Source: an uncultured Verrucomicrobiales bacterium (GTDB taxonomy: Bacteria; Verrucomicrobiota; Verrucomicrobiia; Verrucomicrobiales; Akkermansiaceae). Taken from it: 37,841 bases of DNA. The notes below the pieces were generated by a model. It saw only the letters and a list, made by a program, of their open reading frames with translations, searched no databases and was not told the DNA's origin. The position numbers and the translations under genes were made by a program. Location: assembly GCA_937928425.1 (NCBI GenBank), contig CALFVL010000134.1:1-37841 (forward strand). Direction: 5' to 3'. Position 1 is the stretch's first letter. Each line of letters begins with the position of its first letter. Below are positions 2,400-6,186 of the stretch, in pieces.

Positions 2400-3626
2400 C
2401 TACCTCACCGGTAAACTCGGATCACCCAGTAAATTAAGCTCACAAATCCCCTGATGATAAGTCGCCGACTTCTCAGAATCCTTCGCGAACCCTGCTTTAG
2501 ACAGCGCTAGAGCATGCCCTGCCCTCGCCCTCTGCTCCCCTAGCGCAGCAGTCCAGAACGCAGTCATCGTCATCGTCGTACCATCTAATTTCCCCTCCAC
2601 CACCATCAAGCGGAAGTCTTTCTCCGGGCGATGAAAATGCGGCTTCCCCTCCCGAGCAGGCGCGATAATTAACACAGCGCCCCCTCCAGGCTGGCGTAAC
2701 ATCGCCTCCGTGATACTAGGATCCTCTTCAGCATCAAAATGCCCCGTAAAGCAAGACACCGTAGTCAGCACAAGAGGGCGTTCGTTACGCAGTTCAGCCA
2801 CATCCTCATAGCTAAAAAACTCCCCTTTCTCCAGAATCCAGCGATCGATCAGGCCATGGCCATGAATATGCCATTTATCAATGACACCCTCAGAAAACTT
2901 CACTCTAAGATTCTCAGGACTCAGGTCAAAGTCACCCTCTTCCCCCTCGGCATCCCAAGTCGTAAAATCATTAAAAAAGAAGGACACCTTCCCCTCTGGC
3001 CAAGCCTTAGGAATAAGCTCTCTCCCGCTTCTCAAAACCTTAGCATAAGCCCCTCTCACCTCACAAGCCATCGCTAATTCACTTATGGTCTCCCCTTCTA
3101 AATAGGCCTTCACCTTCTCGGCGTAGGCTTGCACATCATCCGCGGTTCTCACTGGAATTCTCCCGATCGACAAAGAACCATCCGGGTAAGAAATCGCCCC
3201 ACGATCATCCTCAAATTCACCATAAATCCCATCACCATCCAGATCCCAACTCGTAGCACTCAAGTAATAAATATCGGTGGGAATATCAGTGTCATTCCCC
3301 CACATATTCAGGTGATAAGTATCACGATCAGGAATGAGGCCCCCTTCTGGAGAACTATCTCCTCCTAAAATCACCGTATGAAAACCCTCTTTTGTAATAT
3401 GTTCCTGCACGCAAAGACGGATCTTATTTTGTAAATCTCCGTGAGCATACTGCTTCGCTATATCATCTGTCGGAATCACCTTCATCGAGGTTCCTTGTTC
3501 CCCACGCATCTCAGCATACTCAGACCAAGCCTCCTTCAACTCCGGTGGACTGATTAACAAGACCTTCACCTCAGCTGCTGAGACCGCTAAAGTAGAAAAG
3601 ACAAAATAAGTAATCCCTCTCATCAT
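2400..3626 (-). CDS. Peptidase C25 (gingipain-like) family protein, secreted
   Basis: N-terminal signal-like segment; IHGHG and LTTVSCFTGHFD segments resemble the catalytic His and Cys regions of C25 peptidases; ILGGDSSPEGGLIPDRD and SIGRIPVRTADDVQAYAEKV are typical of the fold. Confidence 0.75.
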   Translation of the reverse strand: MMRGITYFVFSTLAVSAAEVKVLLISPPELKEAWSEYAEMRGEQGTSMKVIPTDDIAKQYAHGDLQNKIRLCVQEHITKEGFHTVILGGDSSPEGGLIPDRDTYHLNMWGNDTDIPTDIYYLSATSWDLDGDGIYGEFEDDRGAISYPDGSLSIGRIPVRTADDVQAYAEKVKAYLEGETISELAMACEVRGAYAKVLRSGRELIPKAWPEGKVSFFFNDFTTWDAEGEEGDFDLSPENLRVKFSEGVIDKWHIHGHGLIDRWILEKGEFFSYEDVAELRNERPLVLTTVSCFTGHFDAEEDPSITEAMLRQPGGGAVLIIAPAREGKPHFHRPEKDFRLMVVEGKLDGTTMTMTAFWTAALGEQRARAGHALALSKAGFAKDSEKSATYHQGICELNLLGDPSLPVR

Positions 3627-5374: not shown

Positions 5375-5587
5375 CTAAAATAAAGCCCCTAACTCCCCAG
5401 GCTTTGGGAAGTGGCCGCTGTACTCTTTTTTCCAGATCACGTCCCCGTCTTTCCGCACCTCAAAGATCCCACCGCCACCACAAACTAAAGTCACCTCTTG
5501 GCCCGTAAGTTGCTCTATCTCAACTGACACCCGGTCAGCCTCAGGGCGGTAATTTCACTGCTCGCAGTACTCAATTTCAATGTCCAT
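5375..5587 (-). CDS. Putative selenoprotein of the SelW/SelT/SelH (Rdx) family, UGA read as selenocysteine at codon 11
   Basis: Manual translation: MDIEIEYCEQ(U)NYRPEADRVSVEIEQLTGQEVTLVCGGGGIFEVRKDGDVIWKKEYSGHFPKPGELGALF*. In-frame TGA at 5557-5555 is at the second redox position of a CxxC/CxxU motif. Reading frame is otherwise open to TAG at 5377-5375. An in-frame TAG sits 5 codons upstream of the ATG. Absent from the ORF track. Confidence 0.82.
5522..5541 (-). promoter_or_regulatory. Candidate bacterial SECIS hairpin
   Basis: Starting about 15 nt after the UGA: GGCUGAC-CGGGU-GUCAGUU, 7 pairs including two terminal G-U wobbles, with a 5-nt G-containing apical loop about 22 nt from UGA. Confidence 0.58.
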
Positions 5588-5703: not shown

Positions 5704-6186
5704 ATGAAAAAGCTTCTTCTTCTCCCCCTCCTCGCCGTCTTTGCGGTGAGCTGCTCCTCCAGTAGAACCCCCGCCAAACGAATTGAAAAAAATGCTGAAG
5801 CTTATAACAAACTCAGCGCTCGCCATCAAGAACTCGTAGAAAATGGGCGAATCGAGGAAGGAATGAGTCGAGAAGCTGTCCTCCTTGCTTGGGGAGAACC
5901 AGGCACTAAGACTGAAGGACAACTTAAAGGGAGATCCTTTGAAAAGTGGTCCTACACCGGGCTCGCACCAGTCTATCGTCAATCATTTGGAGGTGGATTC
6001 GGCTACGGCCATGGCTTTAGACGCTTCGGGCATGGGCGATTTGGGCGCCGAGGATTCGGCCACAGAGGTGGTTTCGGCTCTTTCGGGAGTTTCGGCACCA
6101 GTGTGAGCTATGTCCCCTTCCGCACCGCATGGGTGAAATTTGAAGGAGGCCGGGTCGAAAGCTGGCAGCGCGGAAAATCAAGATAA
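5704..6186 (+). CDS. Lipoprotein with SmpA/OmlA (BamE)-like core and Gly/Phe/Arg/His-rich insertion
   Basis: Lipobox-like signal LLAVFAVSC; EEGMSREAVLLAWGEPGTK...EKWSYTG...AWVKFEGGRVESW resembles SmpA/OmlA-type repeats; a GGGFGYGHGFRRFGHGRFGRRGFGHRGGFGSFG segment lies between. Confidence 0.6.
   Translation: MKKLLLLPLLAVFAVSCSSSRTPAKRIEKNAEAYNKLSARHQELVENGRIEEGMSREAVLLAWGEPGTKTEGQLKGRSFEKWSYTGLAPVYRQSFGGGFGYGHGFRRFGHGRFGRRGFGHRGGFGSFGSFGTSVSYVPFRTAWVKFEGGRVESWQRGKSR

What the first reader, a model, noticed from the sequence alone, without database searches (positions are those of the whole stretch)
5375..5587. Unannotated SelW/Rdx-like selenoprotein gene hidden by an in-frame UGA
Seen directly: minus-strand ATG at 5587 gives MDIEIEYCEQ-TGA-NYRPEADRVSVEIEQLTGQEVTLVCGGGGIFEVRKDGDVIWKKEYSGHFPKPGELGALF and then TAG. 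The TGA falls exactly at the second catalytic position of CxxU/CxxC, and a Rdx/SelW-like sequence (CxxU-NYRPEA, GGGGIFEV, DG..IW, FP.PGE) continues without break or frameshift. This is how selenoproteins are missed by standard gene callers; the supplied ORF track lacks it. If real, the host must encode SelA, SelB, SelD and tRNA-Sec, none of which are in this window.
Basis: partly seen in the sequence, partly recalled or inferred. Interest (0 to 1): 0.88.

Follow-up and report, generated by a model that had tools for sequence, protein, structure and literature searches.

The report
SelW-like selenoprotein gene, overlooked
A tiny gene that gene-finders skip, because an internal TGA looks like a stop, very probably encodes a small selenium-containing redox protein of the known SelW family in an Akkermansiaceae bacterium; it is a genuine but ordinary member of a known family.

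Summary
Minus-strand ATG 5587, TGA 5557-5555 and TAG 5377-5375 frame a 70-residue Rdx/SelW protein (Pfam Rdx 6.6e-17 with Cys for Sec). The genome encodes tRNA-Sec (anticodon tca), SelA, SelB, SelD (itself with an in-frame TGA) and MnmH. All 47 TGA-containing relatives read from the same order keep TGA at this codon. Within the genus, sequence on both sides of it is under purifying selection (pN/pS 0.09 before, 0.18 after). selA is present in 54 of the 55 Rdx genomes among 289. A hairpin 16-32 nt after the UGA has an invariant loop G and compensatory changes at three of its six pairs, as expected of a bacterial SECIS. The predicted fold matches solved SelW-related proteins (TM about 0.88). SelW-like CxxU selenoproteins have been known in marine bacteria since 2005, so this is a new member of a known kind. 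One twist lies outside the window: twelve relatives carry UxxU, with two in-frame TGAs nine bases apart ahead of one hairpin, while a 2026 catalogue lists only CxxU with one Sec for this family. Sec insertion, substrate and physiological role are untested by experiment.

The parts
5375..5587 (-). SelW-like selenoprotein gene, 70 codons plus TAG, Sec at codon 11
5555..5557 (-). In-frame TGA, read as selenocysteine (CEQU motif)
   Evidence: direct reading; TGA conserved in all 47 relatives read
5523..5539 (-). bSECIS-type hairpin within the coding sequence: stem 5539-5534 with 5528-5523, loop 5533-5529 with the invariant G at 5532
   Evidence: covariation, loop conservation, fold

Best explanation
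This is a functional gene for a small SelW-like (Rdx family) selenoprotein. During translation SelB carrying Sec-tRNA(Sec) reads UGA codon 11 as selenocysteine, guided by a SECIS hairpin that lies in the coding sequence just after that codon. The product is a minimal thioredoxin-like fold with the CEQU motif at the first strand-helix turn, where Sec11 and Cys8 would form a reversible selenenylsulfide. It most likely acts as a cytosolic thiol oxidoreductase or peroxide/thiol-reactive partner. Shown: sequence, family, fold prediction, machinery, conservation, purifying selection, covarying hairpin. Inferred: actual Sec insertion, and the redox chemistry and substrate.
For: Rdx hits to Pfam and NCBIfam (TIGR02174 CXXU_selWTH over its cut-off). 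tRNA-Sec over the Rfam cut-off and called SeC(tca) by ARAGORN. SelA 487 bits. SelB over the cut-off with SelB-specific winged-helix domains, its first residues on an overlapping contig end. SelD 375 bits with its own in-frame TGA, SCGGUASK. TGA kept in every Sec-type relative read. pN/pS 0.089 before and 0.179 after the TGA within the genus. selA in 54 of 55 Rdx genomes against 42 of the other 234, Fisher p about 8e-31 without correction for relatedness. SECIS covariation. AlphaFold model pLDDT 91, TM 0.88 to the Agrobacterium SelW-related protein 2fa8.
Against: No experiment shows that Sec is incorporated. The window's own hairpin is not more stable than shuffles (z 0.16), and in a 54-nt stretch the minimum-energy fold differs, so the SECIS case rests on covariation. 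Rfam shows no SECIS family hit. One Rdx genome (G227, 53% complete) shows no selA match, which incompleteness can explain.
Confidence: 0.97

Rival explanations
1. Pseudogene or sequencing error: the TGA is a mutated or misread Cys codon and the frame is dead or artefactual.
For: TGA differs from TGC/TGT by one base; the assembly is fragmented (168 contigs).
Against: All 47 TGA-containing relatives read keep TGA at the same codon, as do the named relatives; purifying selection continues after the TGA.
Confidence: 0.01
2. TGA is decoded as another amino acid (reassigned code, such as Trp) or read through by a near-cognate tRNA.
For: The frame stays open and conserved past the TGA.
Against: TGA ends ordinary genes in this window (3 of 31 longer frames) and 14 of the 47 relatives end their own gene with it. 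Cys, not Trp, stands at this position in Cys-type relatives. The full Sec machinery is present.
Confidence: 0.01
3. Sec is inserted, but the protein is an adaptor or signalling partner rather than a catalytic oxidoreductase.
For: From general knowledge, mammalian SelW is known largely through binding partners such as 14-3-3, and its enzymatic role is unsettled; no substrate is known for bacterial forms.
Against: The strict conservation of the C/U-x-x-U motif with Sec argues for redox chemistry.
Confidence: 0.2

Closest known systems
Bacterial SelW-like (SELENOW-like) selenoproteins, Pfam PF10262 Rdx, CxxU
   Same: Same family, motif and downstream SECIS hairpin with a loop guanosine. [quoted passage not shown]).
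   Different: Only the host differs: an Akkermansiaceae (Verrucomicrobiota) genome, a phylum that the passages I read do not name for SelW. Nothing mechanistic differs in the window copy.
NCBIfam TIGR02174 (CXXU_selWTH) and NF041051 (SelTWH_Campy)
   Same: Over the cut-off for TIGR02174 (47.4 against 34.2 bits).
   Different: Below the equivalog cut-off of NF041051 (76.3 against 88 bits), so it is not that campylobacterial equivalog.
SelW-related bacterial proteins with solved structures (2fa8, 2p0g, 2obk, 2ojl, 2oka, 3dex)
   Same: Fold and sequence family (TM 0.85-0.91, 28-40% identity).
   Different: The window protein is shorter (70 aa against 103-108) and its gene has an in-frame TGA.
Mammalian selenoprotein W (2npb) and MIEN1 (2ljk)
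   Same: Same Rdx superfamily fold.
   Different: More distant (20-28% identity). From general knowledge, eukaryotic SECIS elements lie in the 3' UTR, whereas this one lies in the coding sequence.

Membership tests
SelW-like selenoprotein (Rdx, PF10262) | Rdx domain over the curated cut-off | tested here: met
   61.9 bits against 22.6; TIGR02174 47.4 against 34.2
SelW-like selenoprotein (Rdx, PF10262) | CxxU motif, TGA at the second redox position, aligned with Cys in Cys homologues | tested here: met
   CEQU; Cys-type L022 and L023 have CTGC in the same columns
SelW-like selenoprotein (Rdx, PF10262) | Thioredoxin-like SelW fold | tested here: met
   model pLDDT 90.8; best PDB matches are SelW-related proteins
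SelW-like selenoprotein (Rdx, PF10262) | redox activity with thiols | not testable with these tools
   inferred from motif and fold only
Bacterial selenoprotein gene | SelA, SelB, SelD and tRNA-Sec in the genome | tested here: met
Bacterial selenoprotein gene | bSECIS hairpin just downstream of the UGA with a loop guanosine | tested here: met
   six-pair helix with covariation, G invariant in 44 of 44 distinct sequences; the single-sequence fold is not significant
Bacterial selenoprotein gene | Sec physically present in the protein | not testable with these tools
   needs 75Se labelling or mass spectrometry

The most novel reading that the evidence does not exclude
Within this SelW family of Verrucomicrobiales, the first cysteine of the motif has also become selenocysteine in some lineages, giving a UxxU protein made from two UGAs nine bases apart that share one SECIS hairpin; this arose perhaps three separate times. 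The window copy (CxxU) belongs to the other main branch of the tree.
Probability: 0.7. Interest if true: 0.45.

Novelty: new member of a known kind. Interest (0 to 1): 0.3.

Why it matters
It corrects an annotation gap: the gene is invisible to standard callers in this genome and probably in its relatives. It also places Sec decoding in this genus and several others of its family, while none of the g2 genomes listed from the same family has a selA or Rdx match. The CxxU-to-UxxU change in relatives gives a natural set for asking what a second selenocysteine buys and how one SECIS serves two close UGAs.

Tried and rejected
Rfam search of the region gave no SECIS family, only a chance hit. Single-sequence folding of the hairpin was not significant, so I relied on covariation. 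A phylum-wide DNA pattern for YC/UxxUNY gave mostly unrelated AT-rich matches outside the order and was not used. Neighbouring genes give no functional lead: the sulfatase is next to the gene in only a few relatives. Plasmid hits were distant homologues under 60% identity and were not pursued. Sequencing error, pseudogene and code reassignment were considered and rejected (see rivals).

Full report
Observation. The minus-strand frame 5587-5375 reads exactly as reported, with one in-frame TGA at codon 11 (5557-5555) and TAG at the end. Read with Cys at the TGA it matches Pfam Rdx at 6.6e-17 and NCBIfam CXXU_selWTH over its cut-off. A stop-blind scan of the whole genome finds this as its only Rdx gene.

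Host machinery. The genome (2.57 Mb, 168 contigs, 96.9% complete) holds a tRNA-Sec over the Rfam cut-off, which ARAGORN reads as SeC with anticodon tca. It has SelA. SelB is over its cut-off and has the SelB-specific beta-barrel and winged-helix domains. Its N-terminus lies at the end of contig C88, which overlaps the end of contig C79 in sequence. SelD is itself interrupted by a TGA in SCGGUASK, the usual Sec/Cys site of SelD (the site assignment is from general knowledge). MnmH/YbbB, for selenouridine in tRNA, is also present.

Conservation. In 289 genomes of the order, 55 have Rdx. I read 47 TGA-containing loci from 46 of these genomes, and all have TGA at the same codon. Three genomes also carry a separate Cys-type gene without internal stops. 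Relatives in named assemblies, labelled Akkermansiaceae or Verrucomicrobiales, keep CxxU at 63-81% identity, and more distant Gammaproteobacteria or Pseudomonadales MAGs keep it at about 44-57%. Within the genus pN/pS is 0.089 before and 0.179 after the TGA (synonymous sites are near saturation, so the ratios are rough), so the part beyond the TGA is under purifying selection as protein. selA is matched in 54 of 55 Rdx genomes and in 42 of 234 others. The p-value of 8e-31 ignores shared ancestry and should be read as strong association only. The single exception, G227, is 53% complete.

SECIS. Columns 22-27 and 33-38 of a 44-sequence ungapped alignment pair in 93.9% of cells (shuffles 77.6%; slid versions at most 58%). 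Three pairs show changes on both sides. The loop G is invariant in all 44 sequences. The loop starts 22 nt after the last base of the UGA. PMC1088965 describes a small apical loop with a guanosine as a common feature of bacterial SECIS elements. The window's own hairpin alone is no more stable than shuffled sequence, so the argument is comparative.

Fold and mechanism. AlphaFold2 with 27 aligned sequences gives pLDDT 90.8 and a strand-helix-strand-strand-strand order. The best solved matches are SelW-related bacterial proteins, then MIEN1, then mouse SelW. Cys8 and Sec11 sit where strand 1 turns into helix 1. A selenenylsulfide redox cycle is the natural inference. Substrate and reductant are unknown.

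Comparison with the literature. SelW-like CxxU selenoproteins were the largest selenoprotein family in the Sargasso Sea (48 genes, PMC1088965) and the GOS set (427 genes, PMC2398784). Reviews of 2022 and 2026 list the family as CxxU, and the 2026 one gives one Sec (PMC9312934, PMC13188914). Literature searches of the open-access library found no paper describing SelW selenoproteins in Verrucomicrobiota. That is a statement about that library and those search terms only.

A variant next door. Twelve genomes of the order have UxxU (mostly YUGMUNY), with two TGAs nine bases apart and the same single hairpin. A tree of 46 short proteins puts UxxU in three places: one ten-row clade and two singletons, each next to a CxxU sister. 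Support for the singletons is about 80/86. Repeated Cys-to-Sec change at the first position is therefore plausible but not proven. UxxU itself is known in other families such as Prx-like proteins.

Verdict. Real, correctly interpreted, and ordinary in kind. The window gene is a new member of the SelW-like selenoprotein family.

Noticed in passing
L026, L027, L028, L029, L030, L031, L032, L034, L035, L036, L050, L064: SelW-like genes with two in-frame TGAs (UxxU, mostly YUGMUNY) ahead of one hairpin; the 2026 review lists only CxxU with one Sec for this family.
   Followed up: partly
L019 1501-2430 (G000:C77:50160-51089, minus): The host's SelD is itself a predicted selenoprotein (MASCGGUASKL).
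   Followed up: partly
L011 and L013 (G000:C79 end, C88 end): selB is broken between two contigs whose ends overlap in sequence; it is complete when the two are read together.
   Followed up: yes
L022, L023, L024: Three Akkermansiaceae genomes carry a Cys-type Rdx protein (CTGCRW in L022 and L023) beside the Sec-type copy, so two Rdx subfamilies coexist.
   Followed up: no
window 5704-6186, plus strand: Divergently placed 160-aa putative lipoprotein (MKKLLLLPLLAVFAVSCSSS) with no Pfam or NCBIfam match; conserved near SelW in a few close relatives.
   Followed up: partly
window 2400-3626, minus strand: Peptidase C25 (gingipain/PorU-like) domain protein of 408 aa.
   Followed up: no
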